From IMG/VR virus record IMGVR_UViG_3300030019_000076, positions 1-40,733 of that record: a DNA stretch of 40,733 nt; one strand, 5' to 3'. Numbering within the stretch: position 1 is the first letter of the stretch; each line of letters starts with the position of its first letter. The position numbers and the translations under genes were made by a program. This document shows positions 4,633 through 22,664 of this stretch, piece by piece. The notes below the pieces were generated by a model. That model did no database searches. It was not told the DNA's origin and saw only the letters and a program-made list of their open reading frames with translations. This DNA is from a virus.

Positions 4633-5957
4633 AGCTCCATGACTACCAGCATGTTGCTGTGGAGTTCCTACGTGCTCGGGGTAGGGCAGGCCTGTTCATT
4701 GACATGGGGCTGGGTAAGACGGCCGTGTGTCTCACCGCGCTGGAGCCGCGCCACCTGCCAGCTCTCGTGGTGGCACCCAAGCGCGTTGCCGAGAATGTCT
4801 GGCAGGAGGAGCGTGACCTCTGGCGCCCGGACCTGTCCATCGGGATCGCCATGGGCACCCCGCAGCAGCGCGCTGCCGTCCTGGACGCGGGCCACGACAT
4901 CACCGTCATCGGCCGCGACAATATCAAGGACATCGTCGGGCGTGACCACTTCTACCGGACGCTGATCATTGACGAGCTGAGCGGATTCAAAGATCAGTCC
5001 AGTGCCCGATTCAAGACGATGAGGCGCTGGACTCCGAAGTACGTCTGGGGGCTGACTGGGACACCCGTGCCCAACGGCCTGCTCGACCTCTGGCCTCAGA
5101 TGTTTCTGCTCGACCGTGGAGCCCGTCTCGGCAAGACCGTCTCGGCCTACAGGAGCCGGTACTTCCTGGTGGCCAACACGCTGCCCACTGGGGTCGTCAT
5201 CGAGTGGGCGCTCCGCCCCGAAGCGGAAGCAGCCATCCACCGAAAGATCGATGACATCGCGCTGAGCATGGAGACGGAAGGGCGTGTCGAGGTTCCGGAA
5301 CTGAGGTTCAACCAGGTCGACGTCCCCATGCTGCCTACAATACGCAGGGCCTACCGGGACTTCAAGAGGGACCTACTAGTCAACCTGCAGGATCTCGGGC
5401 TAGGGGAGGAGACACACACAGCTGCTAACAATGCGATCATCGGCAACAAGTTGCAGCAGATCTCGAGTGGAGCCCTGTACTCGGACAGCCTCGAGCGGAC
5501 CTACACAGTACTACACCATGAGAAGATCAGGGCTTGCCGAGAGATCGTTGATGGCACCGGGTCACCCACGCTCATCTTCTACCGATACCAGTTCGAGCTT
5601 GACATGCTCCGAGGCGAGTTCAAGGGTCAACTCTTCACCCCGGCGACCCCGAACCTGCAACGTGAGTGGAACGCAGGCAACATCCCCATCCTCGCAGCGC
5701 ACCCAGCAAGCATCGGGCACGGGCTCAACCTGCAGAAGGGACCCGGCCGAACCATAATCTGGGCGACCCCAACCTGGTCGCTGGAGGAGTGGCAGCAGGG
5801 GAATAAGCGGCTGGCGCGGCAAGGGTCACAGCACCCCTGGGTTATGGTGCACATGCTCGTGAGCCCGAAGACTGTTGACGGGCTGGTGTACAGGGCCCTT
5901 CTGGAGAAGGACATGGAGCAGCTCAGACTACTAGAGCACTTGGAGAGTCCACTGTGA
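4629..5957 (+). CDS. SNF2-type superfamily 2 helicase
   Basis: This is an ATP-dependent DNA translocase or helicase, 442 residues. The visible SF2 motifs are GLGKT at residues 27-31 (motif I), DELS at 115-118 (motif II) and LTGTPVPN from 142 (motif III). In the second domain are GHGLNLQ (motif V) and QGNKRLARQGSQ (motif VI). The last two are characteristic of SNF2-like phage helicases found beside VRR-NUC genes. ATGA and GTGA overlaps link it to both neighbours. A role in replication or recombination is likely, but the substrate cannot be told from sequence. Confidence 0.92.
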   Translation: MKLHDYQHVAVEFLRARGRAGLFIDMGLGKTAVCLTALEPRHLPALVVAPKRVAENVWQEERDLWRPDLSIGIAMGTPQQRAAVLDAGHDITVIGRDNIKDIVGRDHFYRTLIIDELSGFKDQSSARFKTMRRWTPKYVWGLTGTPVPNGLLDLWPQMFLLDRGARLGKTVSAYRSRYFLVANTLPTGVVIEWALRPEAEAAIHRKIDDIALSMETEGRVEVPELRFNQVDVPMLPTIRRAYRDFKRDLLVNLQDLGLGEETHTAANNAIIGNKLQQISSGALYSDSLERTYTVLHHEKIRACREIVDGTGSPTLIFYRYQFELDMLRGEFKGQLFTPATPNLQREWNAGNIPILAAHPASIGHGLNLQKGPGRTIIWATPTWSLEEWQQGNKRLARQGSQHPWVMVHMLVSPKTVDGLVYRALLEKDMEQLRLLEHLESPL

Positions 5958-6673
5958 GCCGCCTACGTCCCTTCTTCCCATACTTCGGTGGAAAGTGGCG
6001 CATCGCCCCCCGCTACCCTGCTCCCAGGCATACCCTCATCGTGGAGCCGTTCGCCGGAGCTGCAGGATACGCGCTGTCCCACCACATGCACGACGTCCTC
6101 CTGTCCGACCTGGACCAGCGCGTGGTCGGGGCGTGGAACTACCTCATCACGACCCCAAGCGAGGAGATCGCTCGGTTGCCGCTGTACGACGGCACTTGGA
6201 ACACCATCTACGACCTGGACATCAGCCAGGAGGCTCAGTGGCTCATCGGGTGGTGGATGAACAAGGGAGCCGGGGGTATCTCACCCAGCAAGTGGATGCG
6301 GGAGTCGGCCAACCTAGGTGAGAACTACTGGGGGCCAGGCATCCGCGATCGCCTCACGCGGCAGGCCGACGAGATCCGCCACTGGAAGGTGCTCCATGGC
6401 TCATACGCGGACCTGGAGAACCTGGAAGCGACGTGGTTCGTCGACCCGCCGTACCAGATCGCTGGCAAGGGTTACCGGCACCACTCGGTGGACTTGAAGC
6501 ACCTGGCCGAGTGGTGCCGGGAGCGAGAAGGCCAGACCATCGTGTGTGAGAACATGGGTGCCGACTGGCTCCCATTCCAGCACTTCTTCGATGCGAAGGG
6601 TGCAGCCGGGGCCACCCGCACTGGCGTGTCGAAGGAGGCCGTCTGGTATGGCCCTGGAGGGGATCTAATCTGA
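5954..6673 (+). CDS. Dam-like DNA adenine methylase (D12 class)
   Basis: This is a putative N6-adenine methyltransferase of the D12/Dam class, 239 residues. PYFGGKWRIA (residues 9-18) matches the family N-terminal motif, EPFAGAAG (31-38) is the AdoMet-binding FxGxG motif, and DPPY (164-167) is the catalytic motif. The target sequence cannot be read from the protein, and GATC is only the commonest for the family. The GTG start overlaps the helicase stop. It could protect phage DNA from restriction or mark replicated DNA. Both roles are inferred. Confidence 0.9.
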   Translation: MSRLRPFFPYFGGKWRIAPRYPAPRHTLIVEPFAGAAGYALSHHMHDVLLSDLDQRVVGAWNYLITTPSEEIARLPLYDGTWNTIYDLDISQEAQWLIGWWMNKGAGGISPSKWMRESANLGENYWGPGIRDRLTRQADEIRHWKVLHGSYADLENLEATWFVDPPYQIAGKGYRHHSVDLKHLAEWCREREGQTIVCENMGADWLPFQHFFDAKGAAGATRTGVSKEAVWYGPGGDLI

Positions 6674-9793: not shown

Positions 9794-11029
9794 ATGGCTC
9801 CATCACAGCACGCGGTGCTGTCCCCTTCTGCCTCTGAGCGCTGGCTCTCCTGCCCGGCATCTGTTCGGCTCATCGAGGCGCTCCCCAAGGACGAGCGGAA
9901 CCAAGAATCGGTCTACGCCCACGAGGGCACTATCGCTCACGCTCTGGGCGAGCTCGAGGCGTCGAGGCACTTCGGCCTCATCGACGACAAGACCTACCTC
10001 AAGCAGCACCGCGAGTGGGTCAAGACCTGCAATCAGTCCGGTATCACGGCGGAGCAGCAGGCGGATATGGCCTACAACATCGAAGGCTATGTCGAGCTCA
10101 TCGAGGAGCGCAAGGCTCTCTACCCCATGACCCAGGTGATGCTCGAGCAGCGGATGGACACAGGGGTGCCCACATGCTGGGGCACATCTGACACGGTGCT
10201 CGTCAGCCCTGAGCACGTCGAGATCATCGACCTGAAGTACGGTGTTGGCGTCCCAGTCTCCGCCGTCGGCAACCCGCAGCTGCGCCTCTACGCGCTGGGT
10301 GCCTATGACACGTTCGGAGAGCTGCTCGGAGACGTGCAGACCGTGCGGTGGACTGTGTACCAGCCGCGCATCCACAACACCTCCACGGAGGAGCTTCCCA
10401 CGTCTGAGCTGCTGGCATGGCGGGAGAGCATCCTCCCGACAGCCGAGGCAGCCATCGATGGTACGGGCGAATTCGGCCCCTCAGATGAGGCGTGCCGTTG
10501 GTGCCCACTGAGCGGACAGTGCCGCGCTCAACTCGAGTTCATCACGGAGCGGGACTTCTCCCAGGACCCAGACCTGCTCTCCCTTGAAGAGATCGGGAAG
10601 GTGCTCGAGGAGGTCCCTGGCATCAAGCAGTGGCTCACCGCTGTTGAGGCTCTGGCGCTCCAGAAGGCATACTCCGAGCAGGAGAGCATCCCCGGGTGGA
10701 AGGTCGTCATCAGCGGAGGTAACAGGGTGCTCAGTGATCCTTCAGTGGCCGCTGAGGCCATCTCCGCAGCCGGGGTGGAAGCAGCGCTGCTGTGGACTGA
10801 GCCCAAGCTGAAGGGCCTCGGGGAGCTGGAGACTCTCCTGAAGGGGCTCCCCAAGATCAAGCCTGAGGGAGCATCCCGAGCCAGGTTCCAGCGCCTTGAG
10901 GACGTCGTCCCTGCAGAGGCAATCGGGAGAACTGAGGGCAAGCCATCCCTTGTCCGAGAGGACGACCCCCGGCCTGCTGCTTCACCCAACGTGCAAGCGA
11001 TGAAAGAGTTTGATGATGTCAACGAGTGA
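9794..11029 (+). CDS. Cas4-like PD-(D/E)XK exonuclease (DUF2800)
   Basis: This is a 411-residue RecB/Cas4-type nuclease of the DUF2800 family. The opening LSPSASERWLSCPASV is diagnostic. The likely active site is D133 in GTSD, then D146 and K148 in IIDLKYG, with PQLRLYALGA after it. Four cysteines, C20 and then C234, C237 and C243 in CRWCPLSGQC, have the spacing used to hold an iron-sulfur cluster in Cas4 and AddB enzymes. It probably resects DNA ends for recombination together with the Gp2.5-like SSB. The ATG follows a copy of the early leader motif. Confidence 0.88.
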   Translation: MAPSQHAVLSPSASERWLSCPASVRLIEALPKDERNQESVYAHEGTIAHALGELEASRHFGLIDDKTYLKQHREWVKTCNQSGITAEQQADMAYNIEGYVELIEERKALYPMTQVMLEQRMDTGVPTCWGTSDTVLVSPEHVEIIDLKYGVGVPVSAVGNPQLRLYALGAYDTFGELLGDVQTVRWTVYQPRIHNTSTEELPTSELLAWRESILPTAEAAIDGTGEFGPSDEACRWCPLSGQCRAQLEFITERDFSQDPDLLSLEEIGKVLEEVPGIKQWLTAVEALALQKAYSEQESIPGWKVVISGGNRVLSDPSVAAEAISAAGVEAALLWTEPKLKGLGELETLLKGLPKIKPEGASRARFQRLEDVVPAEAIGRTEGKPSLVREDDPRPAASPNVQAMKEFDDVNE

Positions 11030-11459
11030 TCTCGTCCGCGTATTCCACGAGACCTACGACTGCCCGATCAATGACGGAGCCCCAGCGTTTCCCGAAGACC
11101 GGCTCATGCTGCGGCTTGGGTTGATCGTGGAAGAGGTTGCGGAGCTGCTCGATGCTTCTTTGAGCAGCCCTGCTGGCGATCTCCTCCGAGGTGTGTGGCC
11201 GGTTATCCAGTCGCTCGACCTCGGAGCCAGGGACATGGTGGAGGTCGCTGACGCGCTGGCAGATATCGATTACGTCGTCTGCGGCATGGCGATCGAACTG
11301 GGGATTCCGCATGACGCTGTCGTCGCGGAGGTTCACCGCTCCAACCTCAGCAAGCTCGGTCTCGATGGTAGGCCGATCTACCGCGCTGATGGGAAGGTCC
11401 TCAAGGGACCCAACTACACCAAGCCCAACGTCGCAGCAGTACTGGAGGAACTCTCATGA
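11013..11459 (+). CDS. MazG-like NTP pyrophosphohydrolase
   Basis: This is a putative all-alpha nucleotide pyrophosphohydrolase. The helix RLGLIVEEVAELLDA supplies the paired acidic residues of the MazG/PRA-PH fold, and DALADIDYVVCGMAIELGI supplies the second metal-binding helix. The C-terminal EVHRSNLSKL and GKVLKGPNY are common in phage members. The start is ATG 11013 or 11016, inside the end of the exonuclease gene. Such enzymes clean or bias the nucleotide pool. With a thymine-modification cassette downstream, a role against dTTP or dUTP is possible but unproven. Confidence 0.82.
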   Translation: MMSTSDLVRVFHETYDCPINDGAPAFPEDRLMLRLGLIVEEVAELLDASLSSPAGDLLRGVWPVIQSLDLGARDMVEVADALADIDYVVCGMAIELGIPHDAVVAEVHRSNLSKLGLDGRPIYRADGKVLKGPNYTKPNVAAVLEELS

Positions 11460-11965
11460 AGGTCTACCTGGCAGCGCCCTACAGCGCACGAGACAGGGTG
11501 AGGAACGATGTTGCCTCACGGCTCATCAGGGAAGGTCATGTGGTGACGTCTTCCTGGCTGAAGGATCAGCACGAGATTACGCCAGACAAGGAAGGGGCAT
11601 CCTGGGGGTCAGACGGCCGCTACATCCTGAAGCACGTCGAAGACGACTTTAAGGATGTTTCCGACGCTGACCTACTCGTGGTGTTCACAGGCGAGTGGAT
11701 CAGCCTCATGTGGCCAGATCTCTCCGAGACAGCACTTCACTCTGGCGGGCGACACGTCGAGACAGGCTATGCGCTGGCGCTGGCTAAGCCTGTAGTGGTC
11801 ATGGGAGAGGCGGAGAACGTCTTTCAGCGAGGATCCTGCCAGTTCCTGCACTCCATACCGAAACTCCTGGCGTTCCTCAACGGCCTGCTCTACTGCGTCC
11901 GGTGTAACAGTCGGCTCGCCGCATCAGGCTCCGTGGAGTGCTCAACCTGCATCGAGGAGAACTGA
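11456..11965 (+). CDS. Nucleoside 2-deoxyribosyltransferase-like protein with zinc ribbon
   Basis: This is a 169-residue protein with a nucleoside deoxyribosyltransferase-like domain. MKVYLAAPYSARD is the nucleotide-binding N-terminus, and the GGRHVETGYALALAKPVVVMG segment contains the conserved Glu of the family. The last 25 residues add a zinc ribbon with C147, C150, C162 and C165. That extension is unusual for the family and may bind nucleic acid or a partner. The ATG overlaps the MazG-like stop. A role in base exchange or nucleotide salvage is inferred from the fold. Confidence 0.8.
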   Translation: MKVYLAAPYSARDRVRNDVASRLIREGHVVTSSWLKDQHEITPDKEGASWGSDGRYILKHVEDDFKDVSDADLLVVFTGEWISLMWPDLSETALHSGGRHVETGYALALAKPVVVMGEAENVFQRGSCQFLHSIPKLLAFLNGLLYCVRCNSRLAASGSVECSTCIEEN

Positions 11966-13009: not shown

Positions 13010-14899
13010 ATGGACTGCAAGCCAAGGCTCTACATCGACATCGAGACCTACTGCACGCTCGACCTCAAGAAGACAGGCGTGTACCCCTACGCGCACCACC
13101 GGTCATTCCTCATCCTCATGGCTGCGTACGCGCTCAACGACGAGCCTGTACAGATCGTGTTTGGCTACGACGTGCTCGCCATCCCTGGCCTCTTCGACCC
13201 CAACGTCCTCAAGGTGGCTCACAACGCGCAGTTTGAGCGCATCTGCTTCAGCGTGTACAGTCAGCGCGTCCTCGAGGTCGAGCCAGGGGAGTACCTGGAT
13301 CCCTCAGCGTGGCACGACACTATGGCCGTCGCTGCAGAGAACGGCTACCCCCAGAAGCTCGAGACCCTCGCCAAGTGGCTACACACCACACCCAAGGACG
13401 AGGCCGGGGTAGCGCTCATCCGCTGGTTCTGCGTGCCCGACCGCAAGGGACAGCGTCGCCTCCCGGAGGACCACCCAGAGAAGTGGCAGCAGTTCTGTGA
13501 CTACTGTGTGCAGGATGTCGAGACGCTACGCGAGATCGACAAGGCGCTCGGCGACTTCCCCACAGAGGCAGAGCGCGAGCTGTGGATCACCGACCAGATC
13601 ATCAACGACCGAGGTGTCCGCATCGACGTGCCTATGGTCAAGGCAGCACAGCAGGCTGCGGAGGACAACCGCATGGAGCAGGAGTTGGAGGCCTCTGGGC
13701 TCACCGGCCTGGTCAACCCAAACTCCACCGAGCAGCTGCTGGGCTGGCTACGTAGACAGGGGTTCACCATCACCAATCTTCAGAAGGAGACCGTCGAGAA
13801 GCTGCTGGAGAGGGAGGACCTGACCACAGAGCAGCGCAGGGTGCTGGAGATACGCCAGGAGCTTGCTCTCGCGGCCTCTAGCAAGTTCACCGCTGCCCTC
13901 GTGGGGTTGAGGGCTGACGGGCGGCTTCCAGGGCAGTTTCGCTTCTTCGGGGCACACACAGGACGCTGGGCTGCACGAGGTGCACAGCTCCACAACCTTC
14001 CCCGGCTCTCCTTCACATGGATCGACCCGGAGACGGACAAGAAGGACTTCGACGAGGCAGGGCAGAACATGGCCATCCTCGACCTGCTCCTCGGCAACGG
14101 AGCCAGCTCCGAGACGCTGAAGAAGCTCGTCCGCCCGATGATCCTCGGCCCGTTGACGACTGTCGACTACTCCGCGATCGAGGCACGTGTGCTTCCCTGG
14201 ATCGCCGGGGAGGAGTGGCCTCTCCAGGCCTTCCGCGACGGCCGGGACATCTACGTCGAGACAGCAGAGCGCATGAGCACCCCTGGCAACACACTGACTC
14301 GCTTTCAGGGAAAGGTGGCTGTGCTGGCGCTGGGCTACAACGGCTCCATCAACTCCCTCCGAGCGATGGGCGGTGATGGTACTGATGAGGAGCTCCAGGC
14401 GCTCGTAAACCAGTGGCGCTCTGCTAACCCAGCCATCGTCCGCTTCTGGAAGGAGCTCGGTATCGCCTTTGAGAAGGGTGGGACTGTTGGGGCTGGGCTC
14501 GTGTCTGTGGAGGTGGAGGACCGCACCAGGCGCATCCGACTCCCATCTGGCCGTGCTATCACCTACCACGGCTGCAAGTGGGTCTGGGAGGAGGGCAAGT
14601 GGGGCAAGAACAAGCAGGCCTATTTCCGCTCCCCCGTGTACGGGACACCACAGCGGACCTATGGTGGTTCCCTCGCGGAGAACGTGACGCAGGCGGTCGC
14701 CCGTGACCTCATGGGGCACTCGTTGGTGCAGATGGTCAAGGCAGGCCTCCCCGTTGTGATGCACGTACACGATGAGGTTGTGGCCGACGGCACTGACTTC
14801 GACACCATCAGGCAGCATATGCTTTCCACACCAGCCTGGGCAGCGGGACTCCCTGTTGACGGAGCTGGGTACGTGGCAGACCGATACCGGAAGGACTGA
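13010..14899 (+). CDS. DNA polymerase, family A (with 3'-5' exonuclease)
   Basis: This is a phage replicative DNA polymerase of about 629 residues. The exonuclease domain shows YIDIETYC (D10, E12), HNAQFERICF and YCVQDVETL. The polymerase domain shows motif A DYSAIEARV, motif B-like KVAVLALGYNG and motif C HVHDEVV, plus TGRWAARGAQLHNLPR before motif A. AAGGAGAG lies just before the ATG at 13010. The modification genes follow one base after its stop, so they are probably co-transcribed. It would have to accept hydroxymethyl-dUTP if the cassette downstream works as predicted. Confidence 0.95.
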   Translation: MDCKPRLYIDIETYCTLDLKKTGVYPYAHHRSFLILMAAYALNDEPVQIVFGYDVLAIPGLFDPNVLKVAHNAQFERICFSVYSQRVLEVEPGEYLDPSAWHDTMAVAAENGYPQKLETLAKWLHTTPKDEAGVALIRWFCVPDRKGQRRLPEDHPEKWQQFCDYCVQDVETLREIDKALGDFPTEAERELWITDQIINDRGVRIDVPMVKAAQQAAEDNRMEQELEASGLTGLVNPNSTEQLLGWLRRQGFTITNLQKETVEKLLEREDLTTEQRRVLEIRQELALAASSKFTAALVGLRADGRLPGQFRFFGAHTGRWAARGAQLHNLPRLSFTWIDPETDKKDFDEAGQNMAILDLLLGNGASSETLKKLVRPMILGPLTTVDYSAIEARVLPWIAGEEWPLQAFRDGRDIYVETAERMSTPGNTLTRFQGKVAVLALGYNGSINSLRAMGGDGTDEELQALVNQWRSANPAIVRFWKELGIAFEKGGTVGAGLVSVEVEDRTRRIRLPSGRAITYHGCKWVWEEGKWGKNKQAYFRSPVYGTPQRTYGGSLAENVTQAVARDLMGHSLVQMVKAGLPVVMHVHDEVVADGTDFDTIRQHMLSTPAWAAGLPVDGAGYVADRYRKD

Positions 14900-14900
14900 T

Positions 14901-15839
14901 ATGGACCTCGACGCAGGGCTCAACTACATGGGGTTTGTCGAGGACAGGCACAAGGTGTGGCGCTCTAGACAGAGCGGCGACCGGCAGCCCTGGACCACCA
15001 ACCCGATCCTCAGGGAGCGGAAGTTCACCAACGTGTTCCGCGTCCTCGACCCAGGCAGCCAGTTCGTGCTCTCGACGCTCTATGAGCCTGACCTGGACGA
15101 GGCTGACCTGCTGCTGCGGCTCTTCCTCTACCGGCACACTGGCCGGTTGGAGGCCTGGAGGATCCTGATTCTGACGAGCGGTCTCCCCACGAGGAGTAAC
15201 CTCTCAGAGGTGCTCTCAGTGTGGCAGAGCTATCGTGGCGAGGGGAAGATCAAGACGCAGAACCGCACTGACCCAAACTCTGGATCGACGAGCCACATCG
15301 CCTTTGAGCGGCCAATGTTCACCAGCGCCTACCTCGTGTTCCCACAGTCACACACCCCTGGCACAGACAAGCTGGTATCGATAGTCGACCTGACACGGCG
15401 GCTGTTCGTCGACGACGCCAGCACGCAGCTCAGCTTCGCCAAGGCGACCACGCAGAAGGACCGGTTCGCCGCTCTGCGGCGCAACAAGGGCGTCGGTGAC
15501 TTCATGGCTATGCAGATCCTCACAGACTGGGGATACTTCACAGAGGACAGGGAAGATGAGTTCATCGTTCCGGGTCCTGGAGCAGTGAAGGGTGCAGCTG
15601 CTCTCGGGATGAAGGCTCTGCCAGCCTGCCACTGGGCACACAAGGCTCTGTCTGGTCTGTCTATCTCCGTAACTATGCCAGATGGCCGCAGGAGAACGCC
15701 TAGCCTGATGGATGCGCAGAACACCCTGTGCGAGTTCAGCAAGTATGTCAGGTTTCAGGGCAAGCCCCTGACTGGCCAGCACTACCGCCCAGCAAACCCA
15801 GGGCCGCAGCCGGAACCCCTGCTGCCGGTCAACTGGTGA
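14901..15839 (+). CDS. 5-hmdU DNA kinase helical-domain / aGPT-Pplase-like protein
   Basis: This is a 312-residue protein resembling the helical domain that accompanies 5-hydroxymethyl-dU DNA kinases and the alpha-glutamyl/putrescinyl thymine pyrophosphorylases, a clade derived from HhH DNA glycosylases. The signs are WTTNPILRERKFTNVFRVLD (residues 31-50) and GVGDFMAMQILTDWGYF followed by PGPGA at 224-228. It probably binds DNA and helps activate or substitute the hydroxymethyl base. The ATG at 14901 comes one base after the polymerase stop and has GGAAGG upstream. Which clade it belongs to needs a profile search. Confidence 0.72.
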   Translation: MDLDAGLNYMGFVEDRHKVWRSRQSGDRQPWTTNPILRERKFTNVFRVLDPGSQFVLSTLYEPDLDEADLLLRLFLYRHTGRLEAWRILILTSGLPTRSNLSEVLSVWQSYRGEGKIKTQNRTDPNSGSTSHIAFERPMFTSAYLVFPQSHTPGTDKLVSIVDLTRRLFVDDASTQLSFAKATTQKDRFAALRRNKGVGDFMAMQILTDWGYFTEDREDEFIVPGPGAVKGAAALGMKALPACHWAHKALSGLSISVTMPDGRRRTPSLMDAQNTLCEFSKYVRFQGKPLTGQHYRPANPGPQPEPLLPVNW

Positions 15840-15857
15840 CAACGAGAGGAACCAACG
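15839..15857 (+). promoter_or_regulatory. Early leader motif (copy 4, short)
   Basis: ACAACGAGAGGAACCAACG joins the end of the helical-domain gene to ATG 15858 of the hydroxymethylase gene. It includes the GAGAGGA ribosome site and the CCAACG ending shared with copies at 9316 and 19988. Confidence 0.6.
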
Positions 15858-17420
15858 ATGGACATGATCTACCAGGACGTGAACCATGCGCTCCCCAATC
15901 TTGCCTCCAGACTCAGAGCAGCAGACGAGCTCGGGTCTCGCGCTGGACGAGTCCGGGAGGAGATGCACAACCACATCGTCATCGAACGTCCGATTAATCG
16001 GGAAGTCCTCGTCCAGGGGCGTGGGGCATCGCTTCCAGCGCAGATCGCGGAGACCATGTGGGTGCTGTCGGGACGGAACGACGTCGCGTTCCTGAGTCAC
16101 TACCTCCCCCGTGCTGCTGAGTTCTCGGACGACGGCAAGGTCTGGCGCGGTGGCTATGGCCCACGCATCCGCTCAGCCATGCACTCAAACGCAGCAGCCA
16201 CACCGATGGAGCCTGTCGACCAGCTCAAGCACGTTCTCGATCTGCTTCAGCGCGACCACACGTCTCGCAGGGCTGTCATCGGCATCTATGACGGGGCAGA
16301 CGACTCCGTCGAGTCGAAGGACATCCCGTGCAACGACCTCCTCGTCTTCTCTTCGCGGTTGGGGAAGCTGGACCTCAGCGTCCACACCCGCTCTAACGAC
16401 CTCGTCTGGGGCTGGTCTGGCATCAACCAGTTCGAGTGGAGCGTGTTGCAGGAGATTGTGGCTGGGCTTCTCGGGTTGACCGTGGGGAAGACTCACTACC
16501 ACATCGTCTCGCTGCACATGTATGACCGGCACTGGGAGAAGTCAGAGGGCTGGAAGGGACTTGTACAGACTGCCGAGGATGCTCTGAAGCCGTCCCCTCG
16601 GTTCGACGCAGAGGCTGTGCGCAACAACGGCGAGGGGGACGTTCACTCTGTACTCAAACTCGACGGGCTCTTCCGGCGGTGGTTCATACTCGAGGATAGG
16701 ATCAGGGTTCAGGGTAGCCAACGTCCAGGTCTTCAAGGGGAGATTGAGGACTTCCCTGAGCCTATGATGCGGTCGTGGCTATACGTCCTCAACGCCTGGT
16801 GGAACGGAGCCTGGCTTCCCGAGGACATCAGGGGAACCAGGCTGGAAGCCGCACTGGAGCTCTCTCCGAAGAGGAAGACGGAGACAGCAGTAGAGCAGGC
16901 GCAGCACGACACGGTCTCTATCGTGACGTTGGCGTCTAACAACACCGTCAGTGAGTTCATCGACGAGACCAGCGACCTCCACGTAGAGAAGAGCCAGGCC
17001 TACGGGGACTCCTGGAAGCGTCGAGGAGAGCTGCTCGGTATTCTCGCCAACGTTGCTAGGAAGATCGACCGGCTCGGAGTCACAGACGAGCATGAGACAT
17101 CTGCCGACACCGCGCAGGACCTGTTGGTCTACCTCGTGAAGTACCGGCTGTGGCTCAAGGCGCATGTGAACGGCACGGAAGACTTCAGTGACGTCGACGG
17201 TGCTGTTCGCCGTGAGATGATGCGCGTTGCATCGATCGTTGCAACGGATGCTGGCTGCTGGCAGTTCAACTGGGAGACCTGGCTCAAGACGCAGTTCGAC
17301 GCTTTGTTCACCGCTGTTCAGGATCCGAATCGGCAATCCCCTGTCGTCTCTGGGATCCTCAACGGTATGGAGCGTGTTGCCTTCTTGCTTGCCTTCCACC
17401 TTTGGCTGAAGGCGAAGTGA
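15858..17420 (+). CDS. dUMP hydroxymethylase (thymidylate synthase family) fused to Nmad1-like domain
   Basis: This is a 520-residue fusion. Residues about 40-230 are a thymidylate-synthase fold, with ETMWVLSGRND, catalytic C158 in DIPCNDLL, RSNDLVWGWSGIN (178-190) and HMYDRHW. N190 aligns with the Asn that selects uracil over cytosine in this family, so the substrate is probably dUMP. The cassette context favours the hydroxymethyl product. The C-terminal part has YGDSWKRRG (382-390), then ILANVARKIDRL, like nucleotide-modification-associated domain 1 (DUF1599). Its ATG follows a copy of the early leader motif. Plain dTMP synthesis is the alternative. Confidence 0.83.
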   Translation: MDMIYQDVNHALPNLASRLRAADELGSRAGRVREEMHNHIVIERPINREVLVQGRGASLPAQIAETMWVLSGRNDVAFLSHYLPRAAEFSDDGKVWRGGYGPRIRSAMHSNAAATPMEPVDQLKHVLDLLQRDHTSRRAVIGIYDGADDSVESKDIPCNDLLVFSSRLGKLDLSVHTRSNDLVWGWSGINQFEWSVLQEIVAGLLGLTVGKTHYHIVSLHMYDRHWEKSEGWKGLVQTAEDALKPSPRFDAEAVRNNGEGDVHSVLKLDGLFRRWFILEDRIRVQGSQRPGLQGEIEDFPEPMMRSWLYVLNAWWNGAWLPEDIRGTRLEAALELSPKRKTETAVEQAQHDTVSIVTLASNNTVSEFIDETSDLHVEKSQAYGDSWKRRGELLGILANVARKIDRLGVTDEHETSADTAQDLLVYLVKYRLWLKAHVNGTEDFSDVDGAVRREMMRVASIVATDAGCWQFNWETWLKTQFDALFTAVQDPNRQSPVVSGILNGMERVAFLLAFHLWLKAK

Positions 17421-18478
17421 CAACAGTCGACTGGCGGCTGCCAGAGAATCGCCTAGAGGCATTTCTCCGGCAGTACGGCATGCACCTCAAGTACAAGACC
17501 CACCCAGGGCTCGTGTACTCGTTCCTGCCTGCGATCGCGCAGCACTATGGGCTCGACGAGCGCGGCCGGGCTTGGCTCACATGGCTCAACGGCAACACGC
17601 AGAACCCCGCGATGAGCCTGCTGCTGGGGGAGGCGTCGAGCTGGGACCCGATCCGCTGGCAGGGGGCTGTCGACTTCTGGAACGACAACTTCAAGGCGAT
17701 GGACTGGGACACCGACCGGCGCCACCAGAAGAGCAAGTTCGGTGTGGCAACTGCGCAGTGGATCGCGCAGTTCCCCAATCCTGTCCAGGCGTGGGGCAAC
17801 GCTCACGCTCTCGGGTGGACTGCAGTCTGGGACCACGCCTTCTCGCAGCCGTACATGGGTCGTCTCAGTGCCTGGAGCATGCTGGAGTACGCGCGTATCC
17901 TTGGTCTTCACGACCGGGACGCGATCTCTCTTCTGCTCCGCGACAGGGACGGGAGCCGCTCGCACCGCAACGGGCTCGCGCTTCTTGCTGGGGCACCGTT
18001 CGAGGCAGCACACTGGACTTGGGACGAGATCACAGCATGGACGACAGTGAGTGGGCTCGAGGACCTCGGGGAAGCGCTTCTCGCCAAGGCCAAGCAGCGC
18101 TTCCCCAACTCACCAGATGTGGGCTATCTCACGCTCGAGAGCGCGCTCTGCACGTGGAAGAGCTGGCACAAGCCAAACCGGCGATACCCCAACGTCTACG
18201 CGGACATGGCCTACAACCGGCTCATGAAAGCAGAGGCTCGGTTCGGGACTCGCTTCCAGGTGCTGTGGGACGCGCGAGCTGCGACGCTTCCCGACTACCT
18301 CCGCCTCGAGTGCAGCCCACATGACCCTGGGCTTGTCCCTGCCAAGCAGAACCTGTACCGGGAGACTGGCGTCCCGGCTATGCTGCATGTGCTGTACCCT
18401 GAGGACATGAGCAACCCGCTCAACCTCGACATCGACCTGGGGCTCACCCCAGTAAGGAGCAACCCACGATGGACCTGA
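17417..18478 (+). CDS. Amino acid:DNA transferase (AADT-like)
   Basis: This is a 353-residue protein resembling the amino acid:DNA transferase family of phage thymine-hypermodification pathways, which attach an amino acid to activated hydroxymethyl-uracil in DNA. The clearest parts are GRAWLTWLNGNTQNPAMSLL (about residues 52-71), MGRLSAWSMLEYARIL and SHRNGLALLAG. The GTG at 17417 overlaps the upstream stop, and GAAGG precedes it. Its stop lies inside the start of the PLP-enzyme gene. The family call is from remembered pattern and context and should be confirmed by a profile search. Confidence 0.68.
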   Translation: MTTVDWRLPENRLEAFLRQYGMHLKYKTHPGLVYSFLPAIAQHYGLDERGRAWLTWLNGNTQNPAMSLLLGEASSWDPIRWQGAVDFWNDNFKAMDWDTDRRHQKSKFGVATAQWIAQFPNPVQAWGNAHALGWTAVWDHAFSQPYMGRLSAWSMLEYARILGLHDRDAISLLLRDRDGSRSHRNGLALLAGAPFEAAHWTWDEITAWTTVSGLEDLGEALLAKAKQRFPNSPDVGYLTLESALCTWKSWHKPNRRYPNVYADMAYNRLMKAEARFGTRFQVLWDARAATLPDYLRLECSPHDPGLVPAKQNLYRETGVPAMLHVLYPEDMSNPLNLDIDLGLTPVRSNPRWT

Positions 18479-19347
18479 CCCCCGTCGAGAACCACGACGG
18501 CCTCTGGGTGAAGCGGGAGGACCTCTACCAGGGTGCCTTCGGCGTGAACGGTGCGAAGTACAGGGCGTGCCAGTACCTGATCGGGCGCGCTGTCGCTCAT
18601 GGTGCCACGCGTATCGTCTCTGCTGCCAGCGTCCTGTCTCCTCAGTCTGCGATGGCATCTGTGGTTGCCAAAGAGGTCGGGGTGCAGTGCCACGTCATCG
18701 TCGGAGGCACCACCCCCGAGAAGGCGATCCCGGTGCACAAGCCGATGCGCATCGCTCAGGCAGCTGGCGCAACGTTCTCGTGCATCCCGGTGGGCTACAA
18801 CCCGGCGCTCCAGAGTGCCGCTCTCCACGCTGTGGAGGACGACCTGATTGAGACGTCCTGGAGGCTCCCCTATGGCATCTCCACCCCGCCAGACGCCACG
18901 CAGAGGGACATCGAGTTGTTCCTCCAGGTAGGTGCGCCGCAGACAGCGAACATCCCGGACGAGGTGGAAACGCTCGTCATCCCGTTTGGCTCTGGTAACA
19001 CAGCCGCTGGCGTGCTCTATGGGTTGCACGACAACAGGCCGCGCAACCTCAAGCGGGTGGTGCTCATCGGTATCGGCCCTGACCGGTTGCAGTGGGTCAA
19101 GGACCGGCTGGCGAGCCTGGACTGGCCACTCGGGCTGACTCCTGAGGGCGTGGAGCTGGTGCACATGCAGCTGCACCCGTGGTTCTCGGAGTACGGCGAC
19201 AAGATGCCTGGCGAGCTCGACGGCATCACGCTCCACCCCACTTACGAGGGGAAGGTCGTCCGCTTCCTTGACACAGCACAGCCAGACTGGTGGACAGCTC
19301 GGGACGGGAAGACCTGCCTGTGGATCGTTGGAGGGCCGCTGCCATGA
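18469..19347 (+). CDS. PLP-dependent enzyme, fold type II
   Basis: This is a 292-residue pyridoxal-phosphate enzyme of the tryptophan synthase beta / threonine synthase / ACC deaminase fold. K30 in GVNGAKYRAC is the likely Schiff-base lysine, and GSGNTAAG (174-181) is the phosphate-binding loop. The N-terminal GLWVKREDLYQG is also typical. In known phage pathways a PLP enzyme decarboxylates or otherwise processes the amino acid attached to thymine. That role is inferred here from neighbours. AAGGAG precedes the ATG, and the stop overlaps the kinase start (ATGA). Confidence 0.8.
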   Translation: MDLTPVENHDGLWVKREDLYQGAFGVNGAKYRACQYLIGRAVAHGATRIVSAASVLSPQSAMASVVAKEVGVQCHVIVGGTTPEKAIPVHKPMRIAQAAGATFSCIPVGYNPALQSAALHAVEDDLIETSWRLPYGISTPPDATQRDIELFLQVGAPQTANIPDEVETLVIPFGSGNTAAGVLYGLHDNRPRNLKRVVLIGIGPDRLQWVKDRLASLDWPLGLTPEGVELVHMQLHPWFSEYGDKMPGELDGITLHPTYEGKVVRFLDTAQPDWWTARDGKTCLWIVGGPLP

Positions 19348-19940
19348 CCAGGTCCGTGTACGTCATCGGGGGAGCAGCAACCGGAAAGAGCACCTTCATG
19401 GCCTCGCTGCTGGATGGTGTCGAATTTGGCCCCTTGTCTGACCTCTACTCAGCCAGGCCCTCCCGGAGCCTCATTACGCTTCGAGGGCACTGGCTGGAGA
19501 AGGACGACCACTCCTGGGGACTGTACCTCGGAGTGATGCGTGAGCAGTTCCCGGGGACTGATGGCCTCGACCGCGTAAGCCACACTGTCGCCTCGTCATG
19601 GCTCAGCGAAGAGTCCGTTCTCCCTGACCGCATCGTCGGGGAGGGTCTCAACCTGTCTAACGAGGGATTCCTCAAGTCCCTAGCCCAGCGGACAGATCTG
19701 CTCCTCGTCTACCTGACGGCGACAGAGGAAACCGTGGCTGCTCGCTGCGCTCTCCGGGGCAGCGAGCAGAAGCCCATATTCCTGAAGGGCTCTGCGTCGA
19801 GGGCTCGTAACGCTGCTACGGCCGCGCGCTCCAACGGGATCCGGGTGATCGAGGTATCTGCTGAAGACCACAGCGAGCTTGACCTTGCGCAAGACCTGTG
19901 TGCTATGCATCTCCAGAACACAGAAGCCGCTCTGTTCTAG
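19344..19940 (+). CDS. 5-hydroxymethyl-dU DNA kinase (P-loop)
   Basis: This is a 198-residue P-loop kinase that probably phosphorylates the 5-hydroxymethyl group of uracil in DNA, the activation step of thymine hypermodification. GGAATGKST (9-17) is the Walker A motif. GLYLGVMREQFPGTDGL (59-75) and the later VGEGLNL match the pattern of phage 5-hmdU DNA kinases, and an Arg-rich lid-like region lies near residue 140. The ATG overlaps the PLP-enzyme stop. It is the last gene of the coupled cassette, and the downstream gap carries another leader motif. A nucleotide kinase is the alternative. Confidence 0.8.
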   Translation: MTRSVYVIGGAATGKSTFMASLLDGVEFGPLSDLYSARPSRSLITLRGHWLEKDDHSWGLYLGVMREQFPGTDGLDRVSHTVASSWLSEESVLPDRIVGEGLNLSNEGFLKSLAQRTDLLLVYLTATEETVAARCALRGSEQKPIFLKGSASRARNAATAARSNGIRVIEVSAEDHSELDLAQDLCAMHLQNTEAALF

Positions 19941-19988: not shown

Positions 19989-20435
19989 ATGACCCCGATA
20001 CCCCCAGTGCTTGCTGAGTGGCTACTCAGTTGTAGCCCAGACTCATCAGGGATGTGCCGCATCCATGGAGAGGTAGTTGAGCCTGTAGAGTGCCCCACAT
20101 CAGAGGTGCTTCGAGCAGTCCGAGAAGAGCGCAAGCGGCAGGTTGAACGCTACGGGTCCAACGCGCACACCACAGACGGAACAGGCCCTGGGGTCGAGTG
20201 GCTCCAGCCGGTAGCGGCCTACCCGGCAACTGAGGTGGAGCTGCTGTTCCGCGACGACTACGAGAAGCACGAGCGCAAGGTCACGGGACAGTCGGTGACG
20301 TGGATGCGCTTGGTCCGCGAAGAGGTCGCTGAGGCTTTCAAGGAGAGCGACCCCCAGCGGCTTGAAGAGGAACTCATCCAGGTCGCTGCCTTGTGTGTGT
20401 CATGGGTCGAGAAGCTGCGGGCTCGCCGTGGTTAG
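19989..20435 (+). CDS. MazG-like protein (second copy)
   Basis: This is a 148-residue protein with a MazG-like helical core. VLRAVREERKRQVERYG is the phage-type opening helix, TWMRLVREEVAEAFKE holds the metal-binding EExxE set, and LEEELIQVAALCVSWVEKL is the second metal-binding helix. The first 35 residues are a separate extension with two cysteines. It is unlike the MazG-like gene at 11013. It sits right after the modification cassette and begins with a leader motif, so a link with nucleotide-pool control is plausible. Confidence 0.82.
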   Translation: MTPIPPVLAEWLLSCSPDSSGMCRIHGEVVEPVECPTSEVLRAVREERKRQVERYGSNAHTTDGTGPGVEWLQPVAAYPATEVELLFRDDYEKHERKVTGQSVTWMRLVREEVAEAFKESDPQRLEEELIQVAALCVSWVEKLRARRG

Positions 20436-20872: not shown

Positions 20873-21673
20873 ATGGCCGACCTCGCCACAAGCAACATCG
20901 TTCTCCAGACCGCGGCAACTGGTGAGCTGCGGGTCCACCGAGACACCTGCAAGATCGTCATCGACAAGGGATTCGTCACTGTCGATGGGCTGATCGGGGA
21001 GCACGGTGAGGAGATGGGCAAGCTCACCAGGAAGAACATCGAGGCTCTGGCCTCAGCGAAGTTCTGCACCACGTGCAAGCCCAAGGGTGCGCAGACAACC
21101 ATCGACCAGTTCAGCGAGATCCTCGCTGGATGGCCGGAGGATGAGGGCTCGGACACGTTCGAGGAGCACCGAGCCCTTCTCAACTCTTCCGGTGACAATG
21201 ACGACGAGCCAGTGAACGAGCTCGAGGACATGCTGGGCGAGGCGCTCGTCACCCCCTCTGAGGAGGCAGCCCAGGCTGAGGACGACGCCGTCAGCGACGA
21301 TGACGACCTCATCGGGGACGTGCCTACTGAGGTCAACCCGCTCGAGGGTGTCAAGGTCTCGAAGCACTATGACGACGCACTCATCAAGGTCGGCCTCCCC
21401 AAGCTGGACGGCACGCACGAAAACTTCAAGGACCTCGCTCTCGAGGCCTTCGAGGCCCTGAAGAAGTGGCGCCGGGCTGACGAGGAGTACAAGGCGCTCC
21501 CTCCGCAGGACACCAAGTGGGTCACATCGACCCGCTATGCCTGGGAGCGCGACTTCCTCCTCGGGTACTTCTCTGGGGTCGTCGGCCAGCGGCCGGTGGC
21601 GCACTTCTCGAGGGTTGGTAACCTCGCAGCCCGTCGCGGTGCCGCTGCCGCCAAGGCATTCCGAACCATCTGA
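20873..21673 (+). CDS. Hypothetical three-part acidic protein
   Basis: This is a 266-residue protein I do not recognise. Residues 1-70 form a small domain with RVHRDTCKIV and a CTTC pair that may bind zinc. The middle is strongly acidic and contains SDDDDLIGDV, much like the SSB tail. The C-terminal 90 residues are helical and basic, with FEALKKWRRADEEYK and RYAWERDFLLGYFSG. The acidic centre could bind the replisome, or mimic SSB. The ATG at 20873 is preceded by a degenerate leader motif, and a strong hairpin follows the gene. Confidence 0.72.
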   Translation: MADLATSNIVLQTAATGELRVHRDTCKIVIDKGFVTVDGLIGEHGEEMGKLTRKNIEALASAKFCTTCKPKGAQTTIDQFSEILAGWPEDEGSDTFEEHRALLNSSGDNDDEPVNELEDMLGEALVTPSEEAAQAEDDAVSDDDDLIGDVPTEVNPLEGVKVSKHYDDALIKVGLPKLDGTHENFKDLALEAFEALKKWRRADEEYKALPPQDTKWVTSTRYAWERDFLLGYFSGVVGQRPVAHFSRVGNLAARRGAAAAKAFRTI

Positions 21674-21681
21674 CCGCTCAA

Positions 21682-21715
21682 GAGCAGCCCCGATGCCCCG
21701 GCGTCGGGGCTGCTC
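21682..21715 (+). terminator. Strong GC hairpin
   Basis: The 12-base arms at 21682-21693 and 21704-21715 pair perfectly and can extend inward with one wobble pair. It lies 9 bases after the 21673 stop and 22 bases before the next GTG. There is no T run, so termination may be partial. Confidence 0.65.
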
Positions 21716-21737
21716 CCGTCTACCCAAGGAGCACACT

Positions 21738-22664
21738 GTGCGGATCCAGTACATCGAGAAGAACTTCCAGCGCACGACGCTGGCGCTGATCCGGAAGGCC
21801 AGCGAGATCGCTGAAGAGTACGCGGCACAGGGGTATGACCTCACACTGCGCCAGCTGTACTACCAGTTCGTCGCGAGGGACATCCTCCCCAACTCCGACA
21901 AGTCCTACGACCGCCTCGGCGTCGCAGTGTCTGACGCGAGGCTCGCTGGGCTCTTGGACTGGGACCGCATCGTCGACCGCACCAGAAGTGTTGCCGGAGG
22001 TAGCACCGACTGGGTCTCTCCGAGCAACATCATCGAGGTCAGCGCTGACCAGTACCAGCGCGACCTATGGGAGGCGTCTGACCAGACGTTCCGCCCAGAG
22101 GTGTGGGTTGAGAAGGAGGCACTTGCTGGCGTAATCGCTCGCGCTGCAAACGGCTTCCAGGCTCCCTACTTCTCATGCCGGGGATACGTCAGCCAGTCGG
22201 CAATGTGGCGTGCTGGGCAGCGCTTCCAGGAGCAGCTGGCTCGTGGGTACACCCCTGTGGTGATCCACCTTGGCGACCACGACCCGAGTGGTCTCGACAT
22301 GACCAGGGACATCCGCGAACGGCTGCAGATGTTCGTCGGAGAGCCTATTGAAGTGCAGCGTATCGCGCTGAACATGGACCAGATCGAGGAATTCCAGCCA
22401 CCGCCCAACCCAGCCAAGCTCTCTGACGCTCGCGCGCAGGGGTACGTCGCGGAGTACGGATACGAGTCTTGGGAGCTAGACGCCCTGGAGCCGAGCGTGC
22501 TAGAGCGCCTCATCAAGGAGGCCGTCGAGCCGCTGGTTGACCAAACTGCTTGGGATGCGGCGGACGCGAATGACCAGGTCGAGCGAGACCGTATGCACGA
22601 GATCGCAGATCGATGGGATGCCATCAGCGCCCGGTGGGAAGAGATCGAGGAGCTGCTTGGGTAA
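21738..22664 (+). CDS. Topo VI A/Spo11-like Toprim protein
   Basis: This is a 308-residue protein with a winged-helix-like N-terminus (LTLRQLYYQFVARDIL, residues 35-50) followed by a Toprim domain. The conserved Glu lies in WVEKEALAG (about 125-127), and the DxD pair is D180 and D182 in HLGDHDPSG. This is the layout of topoisomerase VI subunit A and Spo11-like proteins, minus an obvious catalytic tyrosine context. It could nick DNA or act as an RNA-primer or repair nuclease. I chose GTG 21738 because AAGGAG precedes it. The frame is open further upstream but crosses a hairpin. Confidence 0.72.
   Translation: MRIQYIEKNFQRTTLALIRKASEIAEEYAAQGYDLTLRQLYYQFVARDILPNSDKSYDRLGVAVSDARLAGLLDWDRIVDRTRSVAGGSTDWVSPSNIIEVSADQYQRDLWEASDQTFRPEVWVEKEALAGVIARAANGFQAPYFSCRGYVSQSAMWRAGQRFQEQLARGYTPVVIHLGDHDPSGLDMTRDIRERLQMFVGEPIEVQRIALNMDQIEEFQPPPNPAKLSDARAQGYVAEYGYESWELDALEPSVLERLIKEAVEPLVDQTAWDAADANDQVERDRMHEIADRWDAISARWEEIEELLG

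What the first reader, a model, noticed from the sequence alone, without database searches (positions are those of the whole stretch)
13010..19940. Apparently complete thymine hypermodification cassette coupled to the DNA polymerase
Five modification genes follow the family A polymerase with gaps of 1 to 18 bases or overlaps: helical-domain/aGPT-Pplase-like (14901), TS-type hydroxymethylase (15858), AADT-like (17417), PLP enzyme (18469) and a P-loop 5-hmdU kinase (19344). In the known ViI- and M6-type pathways these enzyme types make hmdU, activate it in DNA, attach an amino acid and process it. All key motifs are visible in the translations. The phage DNA probably carries a bulky modified thymine that blocks restriction and other host defences.
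Basis: partly seen in the sequence, partly recalled or inferred. Interest (0 to 1): 0.9.

Follow-up and report, generated by a model that had tools for sequence, protein, structure and literature searches.

The report
ViI-like thymine hypermodification gene cassette
This phage carries, directly behind its DNA polymerase gene, a compact set of genes of a known kind that puts a bulky amino-acid-derived group on thymines in its DNA, most likely to shield the DNA from bacterial nucleases; the set is a real new member of that kind, not a new kind.

Summary
Five intact genes follow a family A polymerase at the stated coordinates, with gaps of 1 and 18 bases or overlaps of 4 to 10. Pfam places them as HMUDK_hel, thymidylate synthase, amino acid:DNA transferase, PLP enzyme and P-loop kinase. 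The synthase looks like a dUMP hydroxymethylase: nearest solved relative MilA (CMP hydroxymethylase), with the uracil-reading Asn kept. Transferase and PLP enzyme are full-length relatives of Salmonella phage ViI gp247 and gp226, not of M6 gp51 and gp52. The transferase model matches the solved PaMx11 glycinyltransferase. Two corrections: the kinase is outside the Pfam family of the proven 5-hmdU DNA kinases (only distantly related), and ViI-type rather than M6-type chemistry is expected. Best reading: 5-hmdU is made before replication, then phosphorylated, amino-acylated and trimmed in DNA. The product is unproven; 5-(2-aminoethoxy)methyl-dU is the leading guess. Glutamicibacter phage Montesquieu has the same set in two blocks; a dozen viral contigs have all five genes. 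Relatives show one transferase-PLP-kinase body behind two alternative heads: synthase plus helical protein, or ParB plus TET. Verdict: new member of a known kind.

The parts
13010..14899 (+). family A DNA polymerase with exonuclease-like N-terminus (ORF opens at GTG 12956)
   Evidence: PF00476 1.4e-11, phrog_17 6.5e-103
14901..15839 (+). helical protein HMUDK_hel / aGPT-Pplase1 family; likely 5-hmdU-DNA recognising partner of the modifying enzymes
   Evidence: PF18723 8.6e-39, phrog_2396 = family of M6 gp55; AlphaFold2 pLDDT 93.6; matches predicted structures of SP10 and PhiW-14 proteins
15858..17420 (+). thymidylate-synthase-fold enzyme, predicted dUMP hydroxymethylase, with an extra conserved C-terminal domain
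   Evidence: PF00303 4.4e-18; nearest solved structure CMP 5-hydroxymethylase 5b6d 1.8e-21; WDEW segment of methylases replaced by FSDDG; uracil-type Asn kept
16947..17150 (+). C-terminal domain of the synthase with motif KxxAYGxSWKRRGE...ARKxDRL
   Evidence: 21 invariant columns in 16 relatives; weak matches phrog_22490 and phrog_1485; no Pfam match
17417..18478 (+). amino acid:DNA transferase (AADT, aGPT-Pplase2)
   Evidence: PF18724 4.0e-15; phrog_3271 5.8e-67 = ViI gp247 family; model matches PDB 8z2m/8z2n with probability 1.00, TM 0.49-0.56 (query), 0.57-0.67 (target)
18469..19347 (+). fold-type II PLP enzyme, predicted decarboxylase of the attached amino acid
   Evidence: PF00291 8.1e-10; phrog_3650 9.5e-69 = ViI gp226 family; PLP lysine in NGxK conserved 69/69
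19344..19940 (+). P-loop kinase, predicted 5-hmdU DNA kinase
   Evidence: PF18751 8.8e-11; phrog_800 1.2e-9 shared with ViI gp67 and M6 gp54; Walker A Gly and Lys conserved 82/82
19989..20435 (+). MazG-like protein, possible nucleotide pyrophosphohydrolase, probably part of the unit
   Evidence: phrog_2831 1.1e-17; REExAE...QVA motif conserved in 12 relatives, near the cassette in most; no significant Pfam match

Best explanation
The locus is a thymidine hypermodification cassette of the Ackermannviridae ViI type in a tailed phage, probably of an actinobacterium. Inferred order of steps: (1) the synthase-fold enzyme turns dUMP into 5-hydroxymethyl-dUMP; (2) after conversion to the triphosphate, the phage polymerase puts 5-hmdU into DNA in place of thymine; (3) the helical protein recognises 5-hmdU in DNA and helps the P-loop kinase phosphorylate its hydroxyl group; (4) AADT displaces the phosphate with an amino acid, by homology to ViI gp247 most likely serine; (5) the PLP enzyme removes the carboxyl group, giving most likely 5-(2-aminoethoxy)methyl-dU on part of the thymines. 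The bulky cation would hinder host nucleases. Shown here: family membership, intact motifs, conserved gene order, fold of the AADT model. Inferred: every reaction, the amino acid, the product and the protective effect. The confidence given is for a thymine hypermodification pathway of this kind; for the exact product I would give about 0.4.
For: Family placement of all five proteins. AADT and PLP align end to end with ViI gp247 (28%, 6e-25) and gp226 (29%, 8e-36) but hardly with M6 gp51 (0.05) and gp52 (5e-6, partial); the same split by PHROG families. Synthase closest to a solved hydroxymethylase, shares the [FY]S[DA]DG segment with M6, ViI and MilA, and keeps the Asn where the CMP enzyme has Asp. 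AADT model matches the solved glycinyltransferase PUGT of PaMx11. Conserved cassette in Montesquieu and in a dozen viral contigs. Literature: the M6-like cassette of the same enzyme types (PMC9476957); 5-NeOmdU on about 40% of thymidines in ViI-type phages (PMC11721090); restriction resistance of such DNA (PMC6449724).
Against: No chemistry is shown. The kinase lacks the Pfam family of the proven 5-hmdU DNA kinases. ViI gp247 lies on a very long branch relative to the window AADT, which is closer to transferases of TET-type phages, so the choice of serine is weak. No dedicated 5-hmdUMP kinase was identified, though not every small ORF of the window was profiled.
Confidence: 0.85

Rival explanations
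1. The cassette works as described but the product is not 5-(2-aminoethoxy)methyl-dU: the AADT uses another amino acid, or the PLP enzyme does something other than decarboxylation (for example elimination or deamination), giving another base. (A refinement of the best explanation, not exclusive with its general part.)
For: The window AADT is 28% identical to gp247 and sits in a clade nested among TET-route transferases of untested specificity; the PLP enzyme's solved relatives are D-cysteine desulfhydrase and ACC deaminase, not decarboxylases.
Against: Transferase and PLP enzyme occur together in both ViI and the window, as full-length homologues.
Confidence: 0.45
2. The P-loop gene at 19344 is not the DNA kinase but a nucleotide kinase acting on 5-hmdUMP before replication, with the DNA kinase step done by another protein.
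For: It matches PF18751 (P-loop nucleotide kinase 3), not PF18748; a relative has a thymidylate-kinase domain fused to the helical protein.
Against: The same kinase family accompanies AADT and PLP behind TET heads, where no 5-hmdUMP pool is needed; it shares phrog_800 and hhalign similarity with the proven DNA kinases; no PF18748 gene is in the window.
Confidence: 0.15
3. The genes are a decayed or unused cassette, and the phage DNA has ordinary thymine.
For: Some relatives lack single members (for example PLP displaced in L024/L106, AADT not seen in Vincenzo).
Against: All frames intact with catalytic motifs kept, tight gene overlaps, and pN/pS below 1 against L012.
Confidence: 0.05
4. The synthase is an ordinary ThyA supplying dTMP, and the other genes act on 5-hmU of other origin.
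For: It is a member of the general thymidylate synthase family.
Against: Loss of the tryptophan segment of the methylases, nearest solved relative is a hydroxymethylase, and no TET or ParB hit in the window.
Confidence: 0.04

Closest known systems
Salmonella phage ViI (Vi01) thymidine hypermodification genes gp67, gp226, gp247
   Same: full-length homologues of transferase gp247 and PLP enzyme gp226; hydroxymethylase of the same fold; helical protein also present (ViI 87558-88565)
   Different: genes are scattered in ViI; ViI kinase is PF18748, window kinase PF18751; window synthase has an extra C-terminal domain
Pseudomonas phage M6 cassette (gp51-gp58)
   Same: compact cluster near the DNA polymerase with kinase, helical protein and hydroxymethylase
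   Different: M6 has a radical SAM enzyme and a transferase and PLP enzyme of other subfamilies; the window has none of these
Glutamicibacter phage Montesquieu MONT_53-51 and MONT_42-39
   Same: all five gene types in the same order, AADT 57% identical
   Different: eight genes separate synthase and transferase, and two kinase paralogues are present instead of one
TET/ParB-headed thymine modification genes of cluster B mycobacteriophages and Rhodococcus phage Tonitrus
   Same: same transferase and kinase families, with the PLP enzyme in most IMG/VR relatives (PMC11955845)
   Different: 5-hmU would be made in finished DNA by a TET/JBP-like dioxygenase; no hydroxymethylase and no helical protein found
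PaMx11 gp46/PUGT 5-PmdU glycinyltransferase (PDB 8z2m, 8z2n)
   Same: same fold as the window AADT model
   Different: 13-14% sequence identity; glycine specificity of an M6-type enzyme

Membership tests
Thymidine hypermodification cassette (ViI/M6 kind) | TS-fold pyrimidine hydroxymethylase | tested here: met
   PF00303; nearest solved structure is a CMP hydroxymethylase; hydroxymethylase-type active-site segments. Activity not tested.
Thymidine hypermodification cassette (ViI/M6 kind) | amino acid:DNA transferase PF18724 | tested here: met
   4.0e-15, over cut-off; fold match to 8z2m
Thymidine hypermodification cassette (ViI/M6 kind) | P-loop kinase for 5-hmdU in DNA | tested here: inconclusive
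   phrog_800 shared with ViI gp67 and M6 gp54 and hhalign probability 93, but not in PF18748
Thymidine hypermodification cassette (ViI/M6 kind) | helical protein HMUDK_hel | tested here: met
   PF18723 8.6e-39; also in ViI, M6 and PhiW-14
Thymidine hypermodification cassette (ViI/M6 kind) | modified thymidine in virion DNA | not testable with these tools
   metagenomic virus record; needs LC-MS
ViI subtype (serine-derived, PLP-trimmed) | transferase of the gp247 subfamily and PLP enzyme of the gp226 subfamily | tested here: met
   phrog_3271 5.8e-67, phrog_3650 9.5e-69; full-length alignments
ViI subtype (serine-derived, PLP-trimmed) | serine as the amino acid | not testable with these tools
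   only homology; long branch to gp247
M6 subtype (glycine-derived, radical SAM) | radical SAM enzyme and gp51/gp52-type transferase and PLP enzyme | tested here: not met
   no rSAM hit in the window, no full-length similarity to gp51 or gp52
5-hmdU DNA kinase family PF18748 | match over the family's cut-off | tested here: not met
   no match in the whole record

The most novel reading that the evidence does not exclude
One amino-acid-attaching body (transferase, PLP enzyme, kinase) has been moved between two unrelated ways of making 5-hmU: before replication (hydroxymethylase plus helical protein) and after it (ParB plus TET dioxygenase).
Probability: 0.25. Interest if true: 0.6.

Novelty: new member of a known kind. 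Interest (0 to 1): 0.38.

Why it matters
It extends ViI-type thymine hypermodification chemistry to small siphoviruses that are probably actinobacterial, in a very compact arrangement (five genes in 5 kb behind the polymerase), which makes the pathway easy to clone and test as one unit. The comparison with relatives gives a testable idea for the poorly understood helical protein and suggests that many actinophage genes labelled adenylate kinase or terminase small subunit are DNA-base kinases.

Tried and rejected
Near-identity DNA search in phages found nothing. P-loop gene as terminase small subunit: rejected, because that PHROG label also covers the kinases ViI gp67 and M6 gp54. Helical protein as a kinase subunit only: LuckyBarnes has it with two glycosyltransferases and no kinase hit. 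That ViI lacks the helical protein was my first impression from partial loci, corrected by a whole-record search. PDB fold search of the helical protein gave only weak matches, to PUGT and 8-oxoguanine glycosylases. Pfam scans of the synthase C-terminal domain and of the MazG-like gene gave nothing usable. The SP10 record could not be fetched. A kinase profile was too diverse to scan viral contigs. The papers by Lee (2018, 2022) and Iyer (2013) are not in the held library. The genome scan found the module in one actinomycetota MAG with a TET head and a weak partial match in a proteobacterial MAG. The Montesquieu paper does not discuss the cassette.

Full report
Observation. The six ORFs are present, open and tightly packed as described. 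Pfam, PHROG and NCBIfam scans were run on each. The window is a 40,733-base linear virus record of IMG/VR. Outside the cassette it carries terminase, minor head, major head, major tail and tape measure proteins on one strand and helicases, exonuclease, Gp2.5-like SSB and polymerase on the other, so it is a tailed siphovirus-like phage. No tRNA or Rfam match was found. The actinobacterial host is an inference from relatives (Montesquieu, LuckyBarnes, Microbacterium and Mycobacterium phages).

Synthase. The nearest solved structures are CMP 5-hydroxymethylase (MilA) entries, ahead of all thymidylate synthases. In methylases a WDEW segment lies over the active site; here it is replaced by FSDDG, as in ViI (FSDDG), M6 (YSDDG) and MilA (YSADG). 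From general knowledge of thymidylate synthase, loss of this tryptophan lets water trap the methylene intermediate, giving a hydroxymethyl group. The Asn that reads uracil is kept, where MilA has Asp. The protein also has a C-terminal domain with motif KxxAYGxSWKRRGE that is strongly conserved in the relatives and in Montesquieu and LuckyBarnes but not seen in M6 and ViI; its function is open.

Transferase and PLP enzyme. The transferase belongs to phrog_3271 with ViI gp247 and not to phrog_6364 with M6 gp51; the PLP enzyme belongs to phrog_3650 with gp226 rather than to phrog_7093 with M6 gp52. Pairwise, the ViI proteins align end to end and the M6 proteins do not. The AlphaFold2 model of the transferase (pLDDT 93.9) matches the solved PaMx11 glycinyltransferase with probability 1.00 at 13-14% identity, so the fold is that of a known 5-phosphomethyl-dU amino acid transferase. 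The PLP lysine is invariant in 69 sequences. The literature held here confirms that ViI-type DNA carries 5-(2-aminoethoxy)methyl-dU on about 40% of thymidines (PMC11721090) and that such DNA resists many type II enzymes (PMC6449724). That serine attachment and PLP decarboxylation give this base, and the assignment of gp67, gp226 and gp247 (orf00067, orf00226, orf00247 in the record) to these steps, is from my own knowledge of Lee et al. 2018 and 2022, which could not be read here.

Kinase. The protein matches PF18751 and phrog_800; ViI gp67 and M6 gp54 match PF18748 and phrog_800. A profile comparison gives probability 93 and E 3e-7. So it is a distant relative, and its role as DNA kinase rests on this plus gene context.

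Helical protein. It is present in ViI, M6, PhiW-14, Montesquieu, LuckyBarnes and Golden, and absent from SPO1, SP-15 and the three ParB-headed phages tested. In IMG/VR contig L122 it is fused to a thymidylate-kinase domain (PF02223 9e-18 plus PF18723 6e-116), and structure search finds it inside a 637-residue SP10 protein named 5-hmdU DNA kinase. In LuckyBarnes it stands next to two glycosyltransferases with no kinase hit in the record. A 5-hmdU reader serving different modifying enzymes would fit both; this is inference.

Two heads. In 81 loci anchored on the transferase (window plus 80), 16 have the synthase, 57 have TET and none has both; the helical protein is found in 14, always with the synthase and never with TET or ParB. 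Caveats: TET hits below about 50 bits are weak, loci reach at most 10 kb each side, and the transferase tree needs only about 4 label changes (quick tree, midpoint root), so these counts are not independent events. In 78 loci anchored on the helical protein, 65 have a synthase (TS or ThyX) nearby and none has TET or ParB. The link of this synthase with aGPT-Pplase1 was already noted in the literature (PMC9599517), and the ParB-TET-transferase-kinase set was noted in Rhodococcus phage Tonitrus (PMC11955845).

Verdict. The finding is real, its interpretation is well supported, and it is a new member of a known kind. The exact base, the kinase step and the role of the helical protein remain to be shown by experiment.

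Noticed in passing
window 11010-11459 and 19989-20435: Two separate MazG-like nucleotide pyrophosphohydrolase candidates flank the polymerase and cassette; they could remove dTTP or dUTP from the pool.
   Followed up: partly
window 5954-6673: D12-class N6-adenine DNA methyltransferase candidate (PF02086 1.5e-5), a second possible DNA modification in the same phage.
   Followed up: no
window 11456-11965: Weak match to nucleoside 2-deoxyribosyltransferase (PF05014 8.6e-4, under cut-off).
   Followed up: no
window 21537-22664: Protein of phrog_6247, labelled DNA topoisomerase, without any Pfam family over cut-off.
   Followed up: no
L122:9173-10930: Fusion of a thymidylate-kinase-like domain with the HMUDK_hel domain in one ORF.
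   Followed up: yes
L007:1-3152: Mycobacterium phage Vincenzo keeps the PLP enzyme and kinase behind a ParB-like protein, but no transferase or TET was detected in the 7.3 kb held.
   Followed up: partly
L100:12590-14875: Contig with hel, TS and window-type kinase but an M6-like transferase (PF18724 6e-23), a natural mosaic.
   Followed up: partly
actinophage records, hits (e.g. L003:2875-3462): About 350 phage records hold relatives of this kinase, many annotated adenylate kinase or terminase small subunit.
   Followed up: no
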